Shown here piece after piece: positions 20,115-46,963 of a DNA stretch of 64,000 bases. A model generated the notes under the pieces. The model did not search any database and had not been told where the DNA came from. It saw only the letters and a list, made by a program, of their open reading frames with translations. The translations under genes were made by a program, and so were the position numbers. The stretch is from a virus. Positions within the stretch are counted from its first letter, which is position 1; each line of letters begins with the position of its first letter. The DNA is taken from positions 1-64,000 of the IMG/VR virus record IMGVR_UViG_3300043313_001040; one strand, 5' to 3'.

Positions 20115-20894
20115 TTACTCTTCCAACTTCAGGTGATCTTTGCCTCGCAACCGGTTTAGCCGTTTCTGGACTTCGATTTTGAGGCTAACCAACTGTTCGG
20201 GACGGACGCGGTAGTTGTAGAGGTCCTCGATCAACTCCACGTATTGCATCATGCTGGCGCACTTTACCATCCGACTGCTTTGGCCCTCGATTTTCTTTAT
20301 CATGCGCTCAGGATCGAAGTCCTTAATGTGGAACAAGTGCATGATCGCTACCGCCAACGGCCGATCCGTAGCAAACGGAATCAGCTTTTTGAGGGTAACG
20401 ATGACGTGCGCCACCTTGTAGGCGTGCTGTTCATTCACCACCCTGAACGTGCCGTATCGAATAGATTCGACTCCGCCGCCACTTTGTTTCCCTCCCAAGA
20501 GAGACGCGCTCGTCGTTACCGGGAGATGGAACTCATGGATGAACGCTCGCAGCTTCACGTAGTCCTTCTTGCCCTGCTCGGCGAAGGAATGCACGTAGTC
20601 CCGTGGCGACCACGGGGTTTGAACACTGTTAGCTGCCGATACGTCAACGATTGAGATGCTGTCTCGTTCAATGTAGAATATCGGCGTCCTAAGTGCCTTA
20701 GCCGCTTCGAATCGCGATTGTCCGTCCGCGATTCCCAATTTACCCAAATGCGGTGTCACCAGGATCGGATAATCCGCGAGCTGGTTCTTCCGCTTGATGG
20801 CTTTTATCATCTTGGCGACCCGTTTTGCCGTGGGTCGGTTGCCCTTGATGTAAGTGAACTTATTGTAGTCTGTTGTTGATAATACCTTAATCAT
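20115..20894 (-). CDS. ParB-like N-domain protein
   Basis: 259 residues. Residues about 15-75 resemble the ParB/Srx domain: a helix binding a scaffold, strand 'YPILVT', then 'GIADGQSRFEAAKAL' (54-68), equivalent to the ParB box that binds CTP in true ParB proteins. Residues about 95-140 (DYVKLRAFIHEFHLPVTTSASLLGG) could be a DNA-binding helix-turn-helix. No ParA was seen. It may be a partition-like, regulatory or nuclease-type ParB homologue. It follows a VWA gene and starts without a Shine-Dalgarno, right after AACAACAAC. See the parS site at 62863 and the dispersed palindromes. Confidence 0.75.
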   Translation of the reverse strand: MIKVLSTTDYNKFTYIKGNRPTAKRVAKMIKAIKRKNQLADYPILVTPHLGKLGIADGQSRFEAAKALRTPIFYIERDSISIVDVSAANSVQTPWSPRDYVHSFAEQGKKDYVKLRAFIHEFHLPVTTSASLLGGKQSGGGVESIRYGTFRVVNEQHAYKVAHVIVTLKKLIPFATDRPLAVAIMHLFHIKDFDPERMIKKIEGQSSRMVKCASMMQYVELIEDLYNYRVRPEQLVSLKIEVQKRLNRLRGKDHLKLEE

Positions 20895-20901
20895 GTTGTT
20901 G

Positions 20902-22554
20902 TTACTGACGTTTAATGATCTGAATTAGGGAATCCGCTATGTTCTCGATCTCGTTCCTGACAAGAACGCTATCGAACCACTTGTGCAGCTTGTCGCTTCT
21001 TGCCCCAGGTTCTCCGACGTAGAGACCGATGGTGTAGACACCTTTCCGGTGCCACTCCTCCTTTCTGATGTGCTCGTCGGTGATCTCGCCGTCGGTGAAG
21101 AAGATCGTTAGATCGCTATTCACCAGCTCGGCCTCATTACTCCGCATGGTGTTAGCGAAGCCTTCGAAGCCTCCCGGGGTGTGGAGATGATTCAGAATCC
21201 TGGGATCGAATGGCATCGGGACCTTGGCGTAGTTTCCTCCACTCAGGATCATATTTTTGCACTCGATCTTTCGCATTCTTACCAACTCGTTGAGCACGTA
21301 GGCCAGGTAGCACCCTTGTTCGGCAACTCCGCTCATTGAACCGCTGCAGTCCAGAACGAAGCTGATCTCTTTTACTCCATAGGGATCATCGCCTTTGCGC
21401 AGATAGATGTCGTCCGCGCCGCGCATGAACTTGTTGAAGTCGATCTTATTAGTCGGGTTCCGACTGGTTATAACTCCCTCGCCGCCCTCCAGGAACTTCT
21501 CGAACAACCGAATCAGGCCGTCAGCCTTCTTCGTGTCGATGGTTCTGATTTTGTGGCCGAAGAACTCGTTAAGTGGAAGCACCAGTTTCTTGTCCTTGTG
21601 ATCTTGCACCTTCAAGTCCGGACGAGGCGGGTCCTTTTTGAGATGCCCACCTGACGGACTAGCGCCGCTGGTCCTGGCGACTGTTTCCTCGATTTCTTTG
21701 TGCTCGCTGCCATCGGCGGCCTCTGCGCCCTCTGGCATGGCTCCGTCGCCCGGGTCCTGAGGATCTGGCAAGTCGGTTCCATGTGGACCGGCAAACCCTT
21801 CTCCAGGCGCTAAACCGCCAGATCCTTCCGCGCCGCCCCCGCCTGTCTCGGGAAAGGTTTTAATCCAGCTCTGGACAATAGGAATGATCTCTTCGGTCCC
21901 GGCCGCGTGGATTGCTCGCCGATAATACCACCTTATCAGGTTGCGACGCCCATACTTCGGGTCGCCAGCGCCTTCGAATTGCATCTTTGGGTCAGGATCT
22001 TTTTTCACCCAATCCTCCATCAGCTTTGGGCTGTTCTCCATGCGGGTGCAGTCGAGAAACAGCCTTACTGCTGGTTGCGGTTTGCCTTCCGCTTTTATGG
22101 CCTCAAGGGCTGGGTCGCCCTTCATCTCGTCGATCAGCTTCAGGTAGCGGAGCCACCCAAACCGACGACGAAACATTCGACGCCACTTGGCCTCGATCCG
22201 AGCGTCTTCCATCAGGTTCCACAAGTGGAACGGGATTTTCGCGTCTTTCTGGAGCGTCGCCATCCGTTCATTGGCCCGGTTGGTAAAGAGGCTGTGGGCC
22301 CCTTCGTGATCGTAAACACGTTGAACGAATGCCATCTTGCCCCTCGACCAGAGAGTGCGTTCGGCGCACTTGTCCAGGTCGGAAGCAATGACGATATTGT
22401 GGCGGCTAATACGATTGTCGTAGCGCCACGATGCCTCTGGCTTGAAGCCCTCAGGCATAAAGGCTAGGTCGTAACCGTCAACGGTTGTCAGTCGCATGAA
22501 CCGACTTTCGATGTGGTAATCAACCAGCCTCGTTTTTTCGCGATAGTTTAGCAT
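20902..22554 (-). CDS. VWA-domain protein with HExxH motif
   Basis: 550 residues. The N-terminal part contains HEGAH (83-87) followed by NLMEDARIE (113-121), a zinc-binding signature seen in CobT-like and metallopeptidase-like phage proteins. A long Gly/Pro/Glu linker (about 235-320) leads to a C-terminal von Willebrand A domain with a complete MIDAS: DCSGS (402-406) and FTDGE (91st-95th residue of the domain, about 486-490). VWA proteins of this kind work with MoxR-type AAA+ ATPases as metal-dependent chaperones or remodelling complexes; the MoxR gene is directly upstream (8-bp gap). AAGGAGAAGT leader. Confidence 0.85.
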   Translation of the reverse strand: MLNYREKTRLVDYHIESRFMRLTTVDGYDLAFMPEGFKPEASWRYDNRISRHNIVIASDLDKCAERTLWSRGKMAFVQRVYDHEGAHSLFTNRANERMATLQKDAKIPFHLWNLMEDARIEAKWRRMFRRRFGWLRYLKLIDEMKGDPALEAIKAEGKPQPAVRLFLDCTRMENSPKLMEDWVKKDPDPKMQFEGAGDPKYGRRNLIRWYYRRAIHAAGTEEIIPIVQSWIKTFPETGGGGAEGSGGLAPGEGFAGPHGTDLPDPQDPGDGAMPEGAEAADGSEHKEIEETVARTSGASPSGGHLKKDPPRPDLKVQDHKDKKLVLPLNEFFGHKIRTIDTKKADGLIRLFEKFLEGGEGVITSRNPTNKIDFNKFMRGADDIYLRKGDDPYGVKEISFVLDCSGSMSGVAEQGCYLAYVLNELVRMRKIECKNMILSGGNYAKVPMPFDPRILNHLHTPGGFEGFANTMRSNEAELVNSDLTIFFTDGEITDEHIRKEEWHRKGVYTIGLYVGEPGARSDKLHKWFDSVLVRNEIENIADSLIQIIKRQ

Positions 22555-22562
22555 ACTTCTCC

Positions 22563-23732
22563 TTAGTTAGGCCGAATCGGGAAGTGGCGAGCGATCAGCT
22601 TACGCAACTGATCCAATTGCTCTGGACTCCGGTGGCCCTGGATATTTCTACCTACCCATACCAGGGCTGAGTCGAGCAACGTATTGCCAATGTCCATCTC
22701 GTTCTCGGCCATCTTGATTCCATCGCAAAGAATACGAACATCCGGCTCCAGCATCAGGAAGTTATCTGCCTTCAGCTTTTTACCTTCAGAGAGTAGCTTC
22801 GCGAACTTCGGTGTAAGCGACACGCTGAACCCGTGATCTTTGAGCACGGTAGCTATGATTCGCTTCACCGATTCCTCCGTGGTCTGCAGATCATACTGCA
22901 ACCATCTACCAGCTTCCGCTGGGTCACCTGCTTGAACGTCGAAACCCGCACCGATGTTTGTTGATGCGATGATTGAGATCATGTGACGCGGCGCGAAGAT
23001 CGTCTCTTGATTGGTTACGAGACCATCTTCTACGTTAATGATCCGGCCAGTCGAAATCGTGTAATACTCGATCCCGTCTGGCATCCTGAATGGAGATAGA
23101 CCGCTAATAAGCGGACTGCGTTCGCGCACTTTGATCCTATACAACTCGTCGATGTAAAGACAGACTCTCTTGCCCTGGGACGCGAGTCGAAACGCGCGAG
23201 CCAGTTCACCATCCTGCCATACTGCTGTAGTTGCGCCTCCCGATGGAGCCCATGGTCTAGGCCCTCCTTTCATCTGTTGAGCGTCCACGCCTTCATCGCC
23301 CTGCATGAGAACGACTTCATCGAACGGCTGCGAGTAGGCGAACACCTTCGCTGCCGTCGTTTTGCCCGAACCCTGGTCACCAATGAACAGGACCGGCTTC
23401 TTCGCTGCACCCGGAGGCACATACTTTCGAAGATACTTCATTACGCTGCTCTCATCACTCGCTTCTGGCGAGAGAGCAGCTTTGATTGCTTTCTTCTTCT
23501 CTACTGGTAACGGCTCGACGATCTTGGAGATGATCTCGTGCAGCTCTTTTTCAATCGGCGGGATGATGTCTTCCCGGCCGAGCTTTATTCTTGTTTCGCT
23601 GAGAATCTTGTAAACATGATCCTCGATTTCCGCTTGCTGTGTGGGGCTAAGCGCCATATACTTCTTCTTCCCTTTCTTCCTGGCCTCCCTCAGCTTCTTA
23701 CGTTTATGGTAAGCTGCGTCTCTGGTTGGCAT
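22563..23732 (-). CDS. MoxR-type AAA+ ATPase
   Basis: 389 residues. Basic N-terminal extension (about 1-35), helical region, then the AAA+ core: Walker A GDQGSGKT (118-125), Walker B CLYIDE (191-196) and a sensor-1 like 'IIASTN'. The order and 'GGPRPWAPSGGATTAVWQDGELARAF' region match MoxR/CbbQ-like ATPases. The frame is open upstream through a TTG inside the palindrome, but the ATG at 23732 is the natural start, right after AACAACAAC without Shine-Dalgarno. Its partner is the VWA protein downstream; together they probably remodel a target complex with ATP. Confidence 0.88.
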   Translation of the reverse strand: MPTRDAAYHKRKKLREARKKGKKKYMALSPTQQAEIEDHVYKILSETRIKLGREDIIPPIEKELHEIISKIVEPLPVEKKKAIKAALSPEASDESSVMKYLRKYVPPGAAKKPVLFIGDQGSGKTTAAKVFAYSQPFDEVVLMQGDEGVDAQQMKGGPRPWAPSGGATTAVWQDGELARAFRLASQGKRVCLYIDELYRIKVRERSPLISGLSPFRMPDGIEYYTISTGRIINVEDGLVTNQETIFAPRHMISIIASTNIGAGFDVQAGDPAEAGRWLQYDLQTTEESVKRIIATVLKDHGFSVSLTPKFAKLLSEGKKLKADNFLMLEPDVRILCDGIKMAENEMDIGNTLLDSALVWVGRNIQGHRSPEQLDQLRKLIARHFPIRPN

Positions 23733-23743
23733 TGTTGTTGTTT

Positions 23744-23759
23744 TTGCAGCACGCTGCAA
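23744..23759. repeat. Dispersed palindrome copy 4
   Basis: TTGCAGCACGCTGCAA, 11 bp upstream of the MoxR start, in the 83-bp gap 23733-23815. Confidence 0.85.
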
Positions 23760-23815
23760 AGAGGGTCGGACTCCTTGCAGCGAGGTTGTCAGACTTGTCC
23801 TACAGGGTCAAGTCT

Positions 23816-24016
23816 TTATTTTTCAGTGAAGGCAGCTATTCGCTCACCCAAAATGTCTGAGTATAACGTCATAGCTACCAGTTGCCGTTCGAGGCGTAAC
23901 TGCTCTGGCCCCTTTACGGAGCGATATGCCTCGCCCCGAAGAAACGCGGTCAGTTTGTCACGCTTTTCGTCCAGCTCTTTTTTTTCGGTCACCACCCTTT
24001 CTTGATGTGGTGCCAT
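23816..24016 (-). CDS. Small conserved-looking phage protein, 66 aa
   Basis: Pattern 'PHQERVVTEKKELDEKRDKLTAFL' near the start and 'LERQLVAMTLYSDILGERIAAF' at the end corresponds to a very widespread family of short helical phage proteins with no known function. Overlaps the next upstream gene by one base. Confidence 0.65.
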   Translation of the reverse strand: MAPHQERVVTEKKELDEKRDKLTAFLRGEAYRSVKGPEQLRLERQLVAMTLYSDILGERIAAFTEK

Positions 24017-24585
24017 TACGCCGCTTTCTTCGGGTTCTTCGGGTTCTCCACGCCTTCCTGGAGATACTCCGACAGCATCAGGTGCCCGAGGATCAGATCG
24101 TCGAGCATTTCCGATGTTACGTAGTCCGGGATGATTTGCGGCAACGGTGGGCTCATCCCGTCGTCGAACCCAATCCAGTTGTTCTCGCCATCGTCGATGT
24201 CCGGCACGAACCGGGGAGCCGGATGGCCAACGGTGCCCGCACCACTGTTGATACGAGCCGTGAAGATGAAGTCCGGCGAAAACCGGGGATCATCATCTAT
24301 GTCCATCCAACGTCCGCGTCCGTCGAACGGAGCGCGACCCGCCTTGAAGGCGTCGTAGTCCATCGGTTTGCGCAGCTTGAAGTAGTAATACCTCCCGTCT
24401 GCGTGCACGATGATTCCTTCCTGGACGTAGATCGTGTCAGGGTCTACGTCTTCTTCCTTCATGCCTTCCGGCACGTAACCCGGAATGACATCCGGCTTCT
24501 TGACTACCGCATAGCGGTGCTGGTTGGCGTCCAGCAGGTAAACTAGATCCCATTCGGGATCGAATTTGCGTTCTACTCTTGGCAT
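24016..24585 (-). CDS. Hypothetical protein, 189 aa
   Basis: Unrecognised acidic protein, rich in Asp, Pro and aromatic residues, beta-rich until about residue 130, then helical. AAC triplets but no clear AGGAG before the start. Sits inside the ATPase block (20.1-26.2 kb), so it may be a partner of the neighbouring AAA+ proteins; this is inference from position. Confidence 0.65.
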   Translation of the reverse strand: MPRVERKFDPEWDLVYLLDANQHRYAVVKKPDVIPGYVPEGMKEEDVDPDTIYVQEGIIVHADGRYYYFKLRKPMDYDAFKAGRAPFDGRGRWMDIDDDPRFSPDFIFTARINSGAGTVGHPAPRFVPDIDDGENNWIGFDDGMSPPLPQIIPDYVTSEMLDDLILGHLMLSEYLQEGVENPKNPKKAA

Positions 24586-24615
24586 AACTGTTGTTGCTTT
24601 CTATTTTTGTGGAAA

Positions 24616-24651
24616 GGGCGGCCCCGAATCAACCAAGGACCGAGGCCGCCC
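24616..24651 (-). other. Strong intercistronic hairpin
   Basis: Perfect 8-base arms GGGCGGCC and GGCCGCCC around a 20-base loop, between the AAA+ gene and 24016..24585. Leftward it is followed by CCCTTTCC rather than a clean T-run: a weak terminator or RNA processing site. Confidence 0.6.
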
Positions 24652-24669
24652 GACTTCCGTTGTTTCTAA

Positions 24670-26187
24670 TTAGGCTCCGAGCGACTTCTTGATCTTCTTA
24701 ACGTCGCCTGCCACTGCATCGACCTTCGGGCCGATGACTTCTTCGATTGCCACCCGCGAAGGCGACAATATTTGATGTGCTTTCTTGACCAGGCTCAGGT
24801 CCTTCTCGGCCTGAGTCGTGCCATCGCCGCGTGGGCGAGCCTTCTTCTGCATGACCTCGCCAGCGATCACCAACATTTCTGTGGTGACGCGCGCGTCGAT
24901 CTCTGCACCGAACTTGCCAATCGCACGCATCTTTGCGCGATTGATGCCGTTCACGATGTCCGCAGGCACCAGGTCCTTGAACGCCTCCCCGATAGCCGTA
25001 ATGTCCACGTCCGGCGCAATGAATTGCCCCGCGACATGTTGAACGAAACGACCAGCCGCCTCCGCATCTGGCGGCGTAAGCTCGATGTCGATGTCGACAC
25101 GGCCGGACCGCATGAATGCGTCGTTGATCTTCTCAGGGAAGTTGGTCGTGAAGACCGTGATGACTTCCGCGTTTTTGGCACCGACACCATCGAGCGTCTC
25201 CAGGATGGAGTTCATCTCTTTGGTCCGTTCCCCGCTGAAGATCGCGTCGCAATCCTCAACGAACAGCACCGATGGGCTGTAGAGCTGCGCCAGCTTGTAG
25301 GCCGACAGGAACTTCTCCGGAGTTTTCAGGTAGAAGTAAGTCCACCCGTGCTCCTTCGCGATCTGCGCCGTGTAATACGACGTGAGCGATTTACCGGTTC
25401 CGAACTTGCCCTTCAACAGCACGCCGCGCTTCACGGCGACTCCATTGATTCGGAAGTCCTGCGGACGTTTCATAACGTCCCAGACCTCCGTCTGCAGCTC
25501 GAACTCGATGTCTCGCGGAAGAATGAGCATGACCTCCTTGGTCACGTCCATATACTTCGGCGCACACTGCGTCGGATCGAAGTTCTCCGTTCCGACATAG
25601 CTCAGATCAAGTTCAACCGGCTGACCGCGATAGATGGAGTGTTCCTTCAGGAACCACTTCGCGGTTTCGACGACTTCCTTGATCGAAGGCTCGAATTTGC
25701 GTTTCACAACGCCCGACACTCCCAACGCGAGAGGTGCACTCGCACCCTTCACGAACAGGCTAAGGCTTCCACCTTCCCATGCGGGCGGAGCCATCTCGCC
25801 ATAAACAACCTGGACGCTTTCTTCCAGGCTGACGGCGATGTTGAGACGACGCGGCGGCCGAGGGCCGAAGAACGTCATTCTCTCCTTGGCGTGGGTGAAC
25901 CCATACACCTTTTCTAAGGCCCTGTTCACGGCCACGATGCCATCCAGAGGATAGCAGTCGAACTCGAAGGAGATTTCCACTGGCTGCTCCTCCAACTCCT
26001 CAGCCTGGAGCAATGCCTTGTGCAGCTCCTTGTAGCTGTTGGCCCGGACAAACCGTTGCCCGAACCGTAGGACCTCGAATTGAGGCTCGACTACCGCCGT
26101 CCCTTCTTTGACGGACGACTCCCTGCCGATCAGCTCCGTTGTTACCAGAGCTTTATCGGATACATCTGCTTTTCGTGTTTTTACCAT
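24670..26187 (-). CDS. AAA+ ATPase, Cdc48/FtsH-like core
   Basis: 505 residues from the chosen start (ATG 26187 after AGAAGTAGG; an upstream ATG at 26211 would add 8). The N-terminal 230 residues are unassigned and beta/alpha mixed. The C-terminal AAA+ module has Walker A GKFGTGKS (260-267), Walker B VLFVEDCD (about 307-314), a sensor-1 'FTTN' and the 'RSGRVD' arginine-finger block (about 361-366). This is the classical AAA arrangement of protein-unfolding or remodelling ATPases. It is a second ATPase next to the MoxR-VWA pair. Confidence 0.85.
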   Translation of the reverse strand: MVKTRKADVSDKALVTTELIGRESSVKEGTAVVEPQFEVLRFGQRFVRANSYKELHKALLQAEELEEQPVEISFEFDCYPLDGIVAVNRALEKVYGFTHAKERMTFFGPRPPRRLNIAVSLEESVQVVYGEMAPPAWEGGSLSLFVKGASAPLALGVSGVVKRKFEPSIKEVVETAKWFLKEHSIYRGQPVELDLSYVGTENFDPTQCAPKYMDVTKEVMLILPRDIEFELQTEVWDVMKRPQDFRINGVAVKRGVLLKGKFGTGKSLTSYYTAQIAKEHGWTYFYLKTPEKFLSAYKLAQLYSPSVLFVEDCDAIFSGERTKEMNSILETLDGVGAKNAEVITVFTTNFPEKINDAFMRSGRVDIDIELTPPDAEAAGRFVQHVAGQFIAPDVDITAIGEAFKDLVPADIVNGINRAKMRAIGKFGAEIDARVTTEMLVIAGEVMQKKARPRGDGTTQAEKDLSLVKKAHQILSPSRVAIEEVIGPKVDAVAGDVKKIKKSLGA

Positions 26188-26285
26188 TTGATACCTACTT
26201 CTTCTAAGCATGGGATTTGTTGTTGTTATTTACCTGACCCACCCACACTAAACTGGCTTCCAGGTAATCTGCTGTAACGTTGGCA

Positions 26286-26334
26286 GCAGACTGGGGGAGA
26301 GTCCTTAGCTAAATGGACTCTCCCCGGTGTCTGC
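26286..26334 (-). other. Long perfect-arm hairpin
   Basis: The outer arms GCAGAC/GTCTGC and inner arms GGGGAGAGTCC/GGACTCTCCCC pair around a 10-base loop with only a small internal mismatch. It is followed by no T-run, so it is probably a structured RNA element protecting or dividing the transcript between 26338..26592 and the AAA+ gene. Confidence 0.65.
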
Positions 26335-26337
26335 AAC

Positions 26338-43270: not shown

Positions 43271-46200
43271 CCCAGCTTTTGTTGGCACCGGTCTTACTGA
43301 TCTCAAACAGGCACTCGCTGGCCTGAACAAGGGTGGAGGCCTGGAGTGGGGTGGCTTTGCTGGCCTCAGCGAATTGGCTACCGGTGCAAGTAAGACTAAG
43401 GCAGTTATCGAGTCGATTAAATGGGCCGCATTCGCCAGGGCTGGTGTTGCGGGGTTCATGTCTATTGTCCCAGCAGCCTACGCTCTGATGTTCGGCATCC
43501 GGAAGGCCGTTACTGAGTCAGGAATCCTTCAGGCTGCGTTGCAGCGACTGGGTGAGACAAAGGTCCTCACCGCTCAGTTCACGCAGTTCTTGGGCAGCGT
43601 GCAGCTTGCGCGACAGCGTGTAGGAGAGCTTTACGCTTTCGTGGCGAACTCGAAGTTCAACATGGGCGAGGCTGGTAACGCTTCGAAAACCCTTTCCATT
43701 CTGACTAATGGAGCCGAGGGCAGTATCGGCAGCCTTCAAATGCTCGGCCGGGTTGCAACTGCCACGGGCAATAGCCTGGAAGAACTAGCTCTCTATTACG
43801 GCAAGTTCAGCCAGCAAAGCCGCAATGGCGAGGACATCTCCGGCACCGTCCAGGCACTCAGGGAGATGGGCGTTATTACCGAATCGACGGCCGCCTCGCT
43901 GATCAACCTACAGAAATCGGGCGCATCTGCCAGCCAGCTCATGTCGGCGTTCAGGAACGACATCGCCGCCGTCGCCGCCGCTTCGACCGATACCAGCGAC
44001 TCCATTGAGGAACTCCAGGATCGAGTTGAAAAGCTCAAGCAATCCGCCGCTGCGGGCTTCGGGAAAGCCTGGATGAAACAGGAAGCTCGTGACCTGGAAG
44101 GTCAGGTCAAGCTCTGGACCGCAATTAGCGGCGCTACCGAGCAGTTTGGCAAGAGCCTGGAGTATGTCACAAGGCCCGCCAACAATCTAAAGAACGCGCT
44201 CTACGACATGGCGGGAACAGACGCGTTCAAGTCATCTCTAAAAACCTTGTCCGACATGGTGTTCATGCTGCCCATAGCCATTGCTGGATACAGCACGTTA
44301 AAAACATTGATGGCCGGGGAGTTACCCGGAAAGGGCTTGATCAAAACAGCGGGTGGCGCACTCAAGACAGTGTTAAATCCTGCTGCTGCCGCTAGGGGAC
44401 GAGGAACTGCCCTGGCTGGTGCTGCTGACGATATTCTTGAAGTTGCCTTGGCTACTCAAGCAGCTGGCGGAACAGTCACTCGTGGAACAGTAGCGAAGCT
44501 GGCAGGAACCGAAGCACTAAGTAAGGGTTTCATGGGTCTGGGTAATGTTCTGAGTGCTGCCGGGGCAGGCATGGTTCGCGTCGGCGCGTTATTGGCCCGA
44601 CTCGCCCCAGTGGGACTGCTTGTTACTGCCAGCACAATGCTTTTGGCAAAAGCCTGGGAGACTTATCGTGATCGTCAAGAACGTGCCGCCAGTGCCGCCA
44701 GAGATGCGCGAGACGCGATGGCAACACGATCCGGTTTAGCTAAAGAGATCGAAAGCGTAAAAACCCTTGATGACAAGACTCGTAAGTTGGCTGAAGCCCG
44801 CAAGTTGCTCAATTCTGCGATAGCCGAGCGTGCCAGAGTTCAATCTGATTCTTCCTCTACCGAGGATGAAGAGTCGGCCGCTATCGCTCTTGTTCATGAA
44901 CGAGAAAGAGCAGTGAAGGCTATCTCGGAAATCAATGTAAAAAACCTGGGGATGACCGAGAAGGAATTCTCCTATCGTCTTCGGCAGATCGACGTGGAGA
45001 ACGAGATTGCCGACATTCAGTATCAGGCGGCCATGAACAGGGCCAATGCGGTTCAGCGAGAGATCATGGCCAACACTCGTTTGGAAATGCTTCATAAAAG
45101 AATGGCCGAGCACGAAGCTATCCGGAAAGAGGAACCAGCGCTTCTCGCAAATCAGCAGGCCATTGATCAAGAACGAGCAGAACGTCGAGGCAAAGCTGCT
45201 GGCGCGAAAGGCGAATTGTTCAATCTCAGCAGGGAGGCGGTAGAACTTCGTAAGGAGATGAACATGCCATCTCAAAGGAGCGAGACTCGTCAACGCGAGT
45301 TGCGCGCCAGGATGGAGATTAACCTCGCTCGTCAGCAGCAGCTTCAGGGACAAATCGCTGGATTCCAAAATCCAACCGCCAAAGAGGAGCAGTTAAAAGC
45401 TGAGCGAAAAAGGATGATCGAGCAAGGCTCTTCCGAGCATAACTTGTTAATGCAGCAGGCGGAAAATGAGACCGATCCTCATAGGGCCAAAGAACTCCGA
45501 CTGGAAGCTGCTCGCGTTGTGGCGAGAAAAGACGATGCGCTGAAAGAGGAGGCAGCTCAGCTTGAGGCTACTGCCAAAGAACGCAAAGCCGCTGCCGACA
45601 AAGAGATTCGAGATTACGATACCAGCCGGTATGTTCGCAAGCTCCAGGACAAAGCAACCATGGCTGCCGCAGCCGGTAACTTTGGTCTCGCCGCTGCCTA
45701 CCAAAAGGCCGCCCAGGATCGTGAAGACGCCACGAATGACGCGAACCGGTTAGACCAACTGACCCTTGAAATGGGTGGCAAGTTTGCCGCTGCCATGAAA
45801 CTTTCACAGGAGCAGGAAGATCGGAAGAGAACCCGCGCCGCCACGGCCGAGGCACGCTTTGGACCAGAAGGCACCGCCACCCGCACGTTGCGTGAACGTC
45901 AGCTTGCGCTCGCTGAGCGCGGCCTTGGGATTCCAGGGTTCGCGGGTCCAGGAATCAGGGGAGCTGCAGCCGGTCGCGAGCTGATCAAGATGCAGGACAT
46001 TGATCAATTCAATCAGACTCTTCAAGAGCTGATGCAAGGTATCGAGGCGACTCCGGAGAACGTCAAAAACGCCACTCGGACAGCTCAGCAACTCACGGCG
46101 GCTGACATTATCGAAAAGACTGCCGACCTGCAGGGAGTTGGCAGCATGGGTGACAGCCTGACCAGGGTAGGTGGTGGCGGCGGATTTTATGCTGGTGCAG

Positions 46201-46301
46201 CCGGTGACCCACAGCTTGCTGCCACAAAACGGATTGGAGATCTTCTTATCATCACCAACGCTCATCTGGAAGAGATGAAGAAACCGGTTGTAGTAAAATG
46301 A
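43263..46301 (+). CDS. Tape-measure protein
   Basis: 1012 residues; scaffold that sets tail length and is ejected with DNA. At about 0.15 nm per residue it would predict a tail near 150 nm. N-terminal region 'GAVIESIKWAAFARAGVAGFMSIVPAAYALMFG' has a hydrophobic stretch; further hydrophobic segments occur near 310-345 and 430-450; the rest is long helical coiled coil with many Ala/Glu/Arg. Two-thirds of the residues are polar, as is typical. A large coding block with no other interpretation. Confidence 0.88.
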   Translation: MPNPAFVGTGLTDLKQALAGLNKGGGLEWGGFAGLSELATGASKTKAVIESIKWAAFARAGVAGFMSIVPAAYALMFGIRKAVTESGILQAALQRLGETKVLTAQFTQFLGSVQLARQRVGELYAFVANSKFNMGEAGNASKTLSILTNGAEGSIGSLQMLGRVATATGNSLEELALYYGKFSQQSRNGEDISGTVQALREMGVITESTAASLINLQKSGASASQLMSAFRNDIAAVAAASTDTSDSIEELQDRVEKLKQSAAAGFGKAWMKQEARDLEGQVKLWTAISGATEQFGKSLEYVTRPANNLKNALYDMAGTDAFKSSLKTLSDMVFMLPIAIAGYSTLKTLMAGELPGKGLIKTAGGALKTVLNPAAAARGRGTALAGAADDILEVALATQAAGGTVTRGTVAKLAGTEALSKGFMGLGNVLSAAGAGMVRVGALLARLAPVGLLVTASTMLLAKAWETYRDRQERAASAARDARDAMATRSGLAKEIESVKTLDDKTRKLAEARKLLNSAIAERARVQSDSSSTEDEESAAIALVHERERAVKAISEINVKNLGMTEKEFSYRLRQIDVENEIADIQYQAAMNRANAVQREIMANTRLEMLHKRMAEHEAIRKEEPALLANQQAIDQERAERRGKAAGAKGELFNLSREAVELRKEMNMPSQRSETRQRELRARMEINLARQQQLQGQIAGFQNPTAKEEQLKAERKRMIEQGSSEHNLLMQQAENETDPHRAKELRLEAARVVARKDDALKEEAAQLEATAKERKAAADKEIRDYDTSRYVRKLQDKATMAAAAGNFGLAAAYQKAAQDREDATNDANRLDQLTLEMGGKFAAAMKLSQEQEDRKRTRAATAEARFGPEGTATRTLRERQLALAERGLGIPGFAGPGIRGAAAGRELIKMQDIDQFNQTLQELMQGIEATPENVKNATRTAQQLTAADIIEKTADLQGVGSMGDSLTRVGGGGGFYAGAAGDPQLAATKRIGDLLIITNAHLEEMKKPVVVK

Positions 46302-46963
46302 TCGAACTAGCCACAGCAGTCAGATACGGTCTCAGTGGACTGTGGGTAGAGAGCTACGGGCAACTCCATACCGACATCTATGGTTTGTCCTCGGCGGTGG
46401 CCATCTGGGCTTCCCCGGCCGATGCGATGAGTTACCCCAGCATGCTGACCCCACATCCGCTGTGGGGCTTTCTCCATCTCGAACGCCGAACCGTCAGTGT
46501 TGAGTATGGTCATTGCCGCACTACGGCTGAGTATGCCGGATTCGAAGGGACACCCGTCCCGGTAATTGAATGGGGCAGCGGAGTAAACGAAGAACCGATC
46601 CAGACCCATCCGGATTTTGAGTCTTTCGCTGGCAAGCCAAGCGCCCCGCTTAACGGTGCCAGGTTCGTTGATCCAACCACGAACAAAATCACAACCAATG
46701 ATGATCTTGGAGTCTTTGATAAATTCTGGTCCAACCCACCTAACAAGTGGGCTGGAGTAACCAGCTATCTTATGCCCGTTGTCATCAAAAAGATAACAAC
46801 CATCGCTCCATCCCCCATCGACATTTCCAGGGTAGGCAAACTGGAGGATGGATACCTCATCAGCAACGCGTCGAGCACTCAGCGCGGCATCGTATTCCAG
46901 AATGTTATTGAGTTCCGTGGTCCAGGTCAGCGCGGCTGGAACGAAGAACTGTATCCCGGGTAA
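46298..46963 (+). CDS. Putative minor tail protein, 221 aa
   Basis: Unrecognised strand-rich protein following the tape measure. Start overlaps the tape-measure stop by 4 bp (ATGA). Position suggests a distal tail or baseplate protein. Confidence 0.6.
   Translation: MIELATAVRYGLSGLWVESYGQLHTDIYGLSSAVAIWASPADAMSYPSMLTPHPLWGFLHLERRTVSVEYGHCRTTAEYAGFEGTPVPVIEWGSGVNEEPIQTHPDFESFAGKPSAPLNGARFVDPTTNKITTNDDLGVFDKFWSNPPNKWAGVTSYLMPVVIKKITTIAPSPIDISRVGKLEDGYLISNASSTQRGIVFQNVIEFRGPGQRGWNEELYPG

What the first reader, a model, noticed from the sequence alone, without database searches (positions are those of the whole stretch)
20115..26187. Block of MoxR AAA+, VWA, second AAA+ and ParB-like genes
Two AAA+ ATPases, a VWA protein carrying an HExxH motif and a ParB-like protein are adjacent with two small unknowns. 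MoxR-VWA pairs act as metal-dependent remodelling complexes; a second AAA with a separate N-domain and a ParB-like partner has no standard phage role. It may be a takeover or defence-like system, or a cobaltochelatase-like or host-complex disassembly machine. Hairpins and a palindrome copy lie between the genes.
Basis: partly seen in the sequence, partly recalled or inferred. Interest (0 to 1): 0.7.

Follow-up and report, generated by a model that had tools for sequence, protein, structure and literature searches.

The report
Phage MoxR–metallopeptidase-VWA gene pair
An uncultivated phage carries a divergent copy of a known two-gene machine, a ring ATPase plus a metal-binding protein that looks like a protease, and the other genes beside it (a second ATPase, a ParB-like protein and two small proteins) turn out to be independent neighbours, so this is not a new multi-gene system.

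Summary
The genes are real and where stated (minus strand, 20115-26211, a 72-kb IMG/VR phage contig), but they are not one system. Only MoxR and VWA form a conserved unit: 43 of 51 loci carry both, adjacent, same strand, MoxR first; of the eight exceptions seven are cut at an end and one is a divergent CobT/CobS plasmid pair. The VWA protein has an N-terminal zincin-like signature (HExxH, then LWNLxEDxxIE) and a complete MIDAS, invariant in 16 sequences at 20-24% identity to it. Its nearest relatives are adjacent genes on Variovorax megaplasmids; the profile also reaches a CobT-type protein. The second AAA+ belongs to a phage family found in 99 records, the ParB-like protein to another; outside the window neither lies near this pair in any related locus. 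Phage MoxR/metallopeptidase-vWA pairs are already described, with virion assembly or cobalamin synthesis proposed. Most likely this is an ATP-driven remodelling or clipping machine with an early or middle substrate; that step is inferred. Defence is not supported. A very divergent new member of a known kind.

The parts
22563..23732 (-). MoxR-type AAA+ ATPase (CobS-like), first gene of the pair; ATG at 23732 after a CAA tract is a better start than TTG at 23759
   Evidence: PF07728 AAA_5 30.4 bits; Walker A GDQGSGKT at residues 127-134 of the longer form, Walker B CLYIDE, ASTN; Variovorax relative matches phrog_249 at 2.5e-13
20902..22554 (-). Zincin-like N-terminal part (HEGAH 83-87, LWNLMEDARIE) plus C-terminal VWA domain with MIDAS (DCSGSM 402-407, TDGEITD); second gene of the pair, 8 bases after MoxR
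24670..26211 (-). Second AAA+ ATPase with conserved N-terminal domain; widespread phage family, a neighbour rather than part of the pair
   Evidence: phrog_10440 3e-76; 99 phage records; 0 of 80 viral loci carry this MoxR/VWA or the ParB-like gene
24016..24585 (-). 189-aa protein, no family found
   Evidence: no relative among the ORFs of the loci fetched by then
23816..24016 (-). 66-aa crAss001_48-related protein, overlaps the previous gene by 1 base
   Evidence: PF21825 2.4e-18
20115..20894 (-). ParB-like protein with a ParB/Srx-type N-terminal motif (IADGQSR); independent neighbour, 7 bases after VWA
   Evidence: phrog_12305 1.1e-35; 0 of 80 viral relatives lie near MoxR/VWA or the second AAA+
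24586..24669 (-). Intergenic stem-loop GGGCGGCC...GGCCGCCC followed by TTT, between the second AAA+ and the 189-aa gene; terminator- or processing-like
   Evidence: fold -30.1 kcal/mol; role inferred
26212..26337 (-). Strong stem-loops in the leader of the second AAA+ gene
   Evidence: fold -47.8 kcal/mol; role unknown

Best explanation
The functional unit is the two-gene MoxR + zincin-VWA pair at 20902-23732, a very divergent relative of the phage CobS/CobT-like MoxR-metallopeptidase-vWA pairs. By analogy with characterised MoxR-VWA pairs, the MoxR protein forms an ATP-driven ring and the VWA domain, through its MIDAS metal site, couples the ring to a substrate; the N-terminal zincin-like domain, which keeps all catalytic-looking residues, then clips or grips the substrate. 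The likely substrate is a host or phage complex that must be remodelled during early or middle infection, since the pair lies outside the structural gene block. The second AAA+ ATPase, the ParB-like protein and the two small ORFs are independent early genes that happen to lie beside it. Shown: presence, pairing, order, conserved residues, independence of the second AAA+ and ParB-like genes. Inferred: ring assembly, proteolysis, timing and the class of substrate.
For: Pair: 43 of 51 loci have both genes, MoxR next to and 5' of VWA on the same strand; seven exceptions are cut at an end and the eighth is the divergent plasmid pair L099. Distances co-vary, r=0.976, 0 of 5000 permutations. Variovorax megaplasmids carry the same adjacent pair (VWA 7e-25 over 90%, MoxR 1e-33). 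H83, E84, H87, N113, E116, D117, I120, E121 and D402, S404, G405, S406, T487, D488 are invariant in 16 sequences. The family profile finds a Pfam CobT protein (E=3.4e-8), matching both its HExxH...LWNxxEDxxIE stretch and its VWA region. Independence: this VWA/MoxR in 0 of 80 AAA2 loci and 0 of 80 ParB loci; AAA2 or ParB in none of the MoxR/VWA loci other than the window; a whole-record VWA profile search finds 1 weak hit in 50 AAA2 records. Timing: the block is on the minus strand, opposite terminase and portal; relatives lie next to Erf, exonuclease and DnaB genes; N4 gp24/gp25, an analogous pair, are middle genes (PMC4193335).
Against: In the relatives the pair sits at the junction between replication and terminase genes, and in L236 it runs in the same direction as terminase, so a late role is not excluded. 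No substrate is known. HExxH could be structural. Homology of this family to the N4 pair by profile is weak (hhalign probability 55% and 70%).
Confidence: 0.55

Rival explanations
1. Virion-assembly chaperone: the pair helps assemble and proteolytically mature the virion, as proposed for jumbo phages and reported for a MoxR-VWA pair without peptidase in an Acidianus virus.
For: Proposed in PMC7824862. In L236 the pair is co-directional with terminase. N4-like roseophages have extra structural genes near their gp24/gp25 homologues (PMC4193335).
Against: In the window the pair is in the non-structural strand block; N4 gp24/gp25 are middle genes; relatives include bacterial megaplasmids where the pair lies near deaminase, exonuclease, Rad52 and SSB genes.
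Confidence: 0.22
2. Viral CobST: the pair completes a host cobaltochelatase with host CobN and raises cobalamin supply.
For: Proposed for archaeal and bacterial tailed viruses (PMC8651126). The family profile matches a Pfam CobT protein, and the Variovorax ATPase matches a CobS-like PHROG.
Against: The window VWA has no hit to the Pfam CobT models. No ribonucleotide reductase in the window's phage or in 24 relatives, most of them fragments, so one usual reason for a phage to want cobalamin is absent. HExxH is kept, which cobalt insertion is not known to need.
Confidence: 0.1
3. The whole block (second AAA+, small ORFs, MoxR, VWA, ParB-like) is one composite takeover or defence-like machine.
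For: Tight spacing on one strand. In Schitoviridae the same second-AAA+ family lies 3-4 kb from the N4 gp24/gp25 pair.
Against: No shared neighbourhood in any related locus of the three families. Only 6 of 50 second-AAA+ records have a DUF2201 metallopeptidase. The nearest relative of the second AAA+ (L013, 45% identity, incomplete contig possible) has no MoxR/VWA found. No PADLOC model fits.
Confidence: 0.07

Closest known systems
MoxR / metallopeptidase-vWA pair of group 2.2 jumbo phages (ASV44729.1 / ASV44728.2, PMC7824862)
   Same: MoxR AAA+ paired with a vWA protein that has an N-terminal metallopeptidase domain
   Different: Direct sequence comparison with those proteins was not done; the window's record is 72 kb, not jumbo, and no cultured phage gives a tblastn hit
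Viral CobS/CobT (PMC8651126; phrog_249, phrog_1576, phrog_459; Pectobacterium plasmid pair L099)
   Same: AAA_5 ATPase plus zincin-like-VWA protein; shared HExxH...LWNxxEDxxIE signature and VWA region
   Different: Window VWA has no Pfam CobT match and is shorter (550 versus 798 aa); in L099 the order is CobT then CobS
N4 gp24/gp25 pair of Schitoviridae (phrog_1297/phrog_1314; DUF2201_N + DUF2201)
   Same: AAA+ followed by metallopeptidase-VWA protein, and the second-AAA+ family 3-4 kb away
   Different: Window VWA does not match PF13203 or PF09967; profile comparison inconclusive
RavA-ViaA, NorQ-NorD, CbbQ-CbbO
   Same: Would work like them: a MoxR ring coupled to a VWA partner (own knowledge; RavA-ViaA papers listed)
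   Different: To my knowledge their VWA partners lack the HExxH domain; no sequence test was made here
phrog_10440 phage AAA+ (KPP25 ORF048, PhiW-14 gp235, Zuri gp37)
   Same: Second AAA+ of the window belongs to it, N-domain included
   Different: Window member is 27-32% identical to the cultured-phage members aligned

Membership tests
Phage MoxR / metallopeptidase-vWA pair | Adjacent MoxR AAA+ and vWA genes | tested here: met
   8-base gap in the window; 43 of 51 loci, exceptions cut or divergent
Phage MoxR / metallopeptidase-vWA pair | vWA protein with N-terminal zincin-like active site | tested here: met
   Signature level only: HExxH plus NLxEDxxIE invariant in 16 sequences; fold not confirmed because structure prediction was off
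Phage MoxR / metallopeptidase-vWA pair | Complete MIDAS (DxSxS, T, D) | tested here: met
   D402, S404, S406, T487, D488 invariant
CobST cobaltochelatase | Pfam CobT (PF06213/PF11775) match | tested here: not met
   No Pfam family for the VWA protein at E up to 0.1; only profile-level homology to a CobT-type protein
CobST cobaltochelatase | Acts with CobN in cobalt insertion | not testable with these tools
   CobN was not searched and the host is unknown. No ribonucleotide reductase in 25 records
N4 gp24/gp25 (DUF2201) pair | PF13203 and PF09967 match in the VWA protein | tested here: not met
   N4-like proteins match strongly
phrog_10440 AAA+ | Profile match over N-domain and AAA domain | tested here: met
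   3e-76 over residues 59-508
phrog_12305 ParB-like | Near full-length profile match | tested here: met
   1.1e-35 over residues 3-234
ParABS partition system | ParA ATPase next to ParB, and parS sites | not tested
   No ParA or parS was sought; the neighbouring ATPases match AAA and AAA_5 models
Anti-phage defence system | Match to a known defence model | tested here: not met
   PADLOC: only generic AAA similarity (IetA 9e-11, RtcR-like 3e-4), nothing for VWA or ParB; PADLOC-DB is of 2023; defence-island context was not tested

The most novel reading that the evidence does not exclude
Phage MoxR/zincin-VWA pairs, this family and the N4 core pair gp24/gp25 included, are ATP-driven metalloproteases that act on a host or replication complex in the middle of infection, rather than virion-assembly chaperones or cobaltochelatase subunits.
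Probability: 0.3. Interest if true: 0.65.

Novelty: new member of a known kind. Interest (0 to 1): 0.35.

Why it matters
Two of the 14 core genes of N4-like phages (gp24, gp25) have no known function, and two published guesses for MoxR/metallopeptidase-vWA pairs (virion assembly, cobalamin) compete. Co-inheritance and fully conserved peptidase-like and MIDAS sites in a separate, very divergent branch argue that this is a working machine and give exact residues to test. It also shows that a suggestive gene block can dissolve into one true pair plus neighbours once neighbourhoods are counted.

Tried and rejected
Direct DNA and protein searches of cultured phages for MoxR and VWA: no match. Single-sequence scans of viral contigs for VWA and MoxR, and a MoxR scan from a three-row alignment: nothing; alignments with relatives worked. 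The genome-contig scan found only Variovorax WDL1. Block as one system: rejected on neighbourhood counts. Defence: no model. The gene after the pair in Variovorax as a ParB relative: rejected, it is a dCMP deaminase-like protein. Structural RNA at the hairpins: no Rfam match. Solved-structure sequence search: nothing for VWA, only weak hits for MoxR, generic Cdc48/FtsH-type AAA for the second AAA+.

Full report
What is there. The window is positions 1-64000 of a 72014-base IMG/VR virus record. Six ORFs lie tightly packed on the minus strand between 26211 and 20115: a second AAA+ ATPase, a 189-aa protein, a 66-aa protein, a MoxR-type AAA+ ATPase, a VWA protein and a ParB-like protein. Gaps are 84 and 83 bases at the two intergenic regions and 7-8 bases, or a 1-base overlap, elsewhere. 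Terminase and portal are on the plus strand from about 29.1 kb. Family scans support the two ATPases, the ParB-like and the 66-aa protein; the VWA protein is supported by homologues, and the 189-aa protein rests on its ORF alone.

The MoxR/VWA pair. No cultured phage gives a match to either protein. The first relatives were an adjacent AAA+ and VWA gene pair on Variovorax megaplasmids. Alignments seeded with these reached viral contigs. Counting one locus per contig where the contig was recognised, 43 of 51 have both genes, with MoxR next to and upstream of VWA on the same strand. The 43 include the window itself and three Variovorax loci, two of them from the same strain, so the total is approximate. 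Six VWA-only and two MoxR-only loci remain: seven are cut at an end, and one is the Pectobacterium plasmid L099, where a CobS-like gene follows the CobT-like gene but is too divergent for the model. MoxR and VWA distance matrices correlate at r=0.976, with 0 of 5000 permutations as high; several of these sequences are close relatives, which inflates such a figure.

Residues. In 16 VWA sequences, the others 20-24% identical to the window's, H83, E84, H87, N113, E116, D117, I120 and E121, and the MIDAS region residues D402, S404, G405, S406, M407, T487, D488 and D493, are invariant. The family model finds the CobT-type protein of L099 at 3.4e-8, with one matched stretch over HExxH...LWNxxEDxxIE and one over the VWA region; hhalign gives 86% for the first.

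The neighbours. The second AAA+ matches phrog_10440 over its N-domain and AAA domain and has relatives in 99 phage records of many kinds, some matching the AAA domain only. Eighty viral loci of that family were fetched; none has this MoxR, this VWA or the ParB-like gene within 10 kb, where the contig allows. A profile search of 50 whole records gave one weak VWA hit, in G019, and PF13203 in six. Some of these records are fragments. Eighty viral loci of the ParB-like family contain neither the second AAA+ nor this MoxR/VWA. None of the MoxR/VWA loci except the window has the second AAA+ or ParB (locus L001 itself is cut short of the second AAA+). In Schitoviridae the second-AAA+ family does lie 3-4 kb from the N4 gp24/gp25 pair, the one hint of a wider link.

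Context and function. In relatives the pair lies beside Erf, exonuclease and DnaB genes and near terminase, in either orientation. N4 gp24/gp25 are middle genes and belong to the 14-gene N4 core with no known function (PMC4193335). Two published proposals exist for such pairs: virion assembly (PMC7824862) and cobalamin synthesis with host CobN (PMC8651126). No ribonucleotide reductase was found in the window's phage or 24 related records. I favour an ATP-driven remodelling or clipping machine for an early or middle substrate; the ring, the proteolysis and the substrate are inferred.

Verdict. Observation confirmed; interpretation partly supported: the pair is right, the single system is not. 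Known kind, very divergent member.

Noticed in passing
window 1-29200, minus strand: CAA tracts (AACAACAAC) occur 31 times on the minus strand and 0 times on the plus strand of the whole record, often just before start codons (16 of 52 candidate genes have a CAA tract within 45 bases upstream, against 5.8% of random positions). Possibly an unusual translation leader; it also suggests the MoxR start at 23732.
   Followed up: partly
L003 13833-14996, L004 11849-13075, L008 5203-6303: N4 gp25-like proteins are annotated as HNH endonuclease (phrog_1314 and GenBank records) but match the metallopeptidase and VWA-like models PF13203 and PF09967.
   Followed up: partly
L099 7959-11824: Pectobacterium plasmid Drgb1 carries a CobT-like and a CobS-like gene near dnaE and an integrase gene.
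   Followed up: no
window 23816-24016: A crAss001_48-related protein of unknown function lies directly upstream of the pair.
   Followed up: no
G019 (record of L033), 44487-46322: A 109-kb phage with the second-AAA+ family also encodes a weak VWA match beside an AAA_5 ATPase, perhaps a CobST-type pair.
   Followed up: no
L042 9767-12934: Two neighbouring members of the second-AAA+ family on one contig.
   Followed up: no
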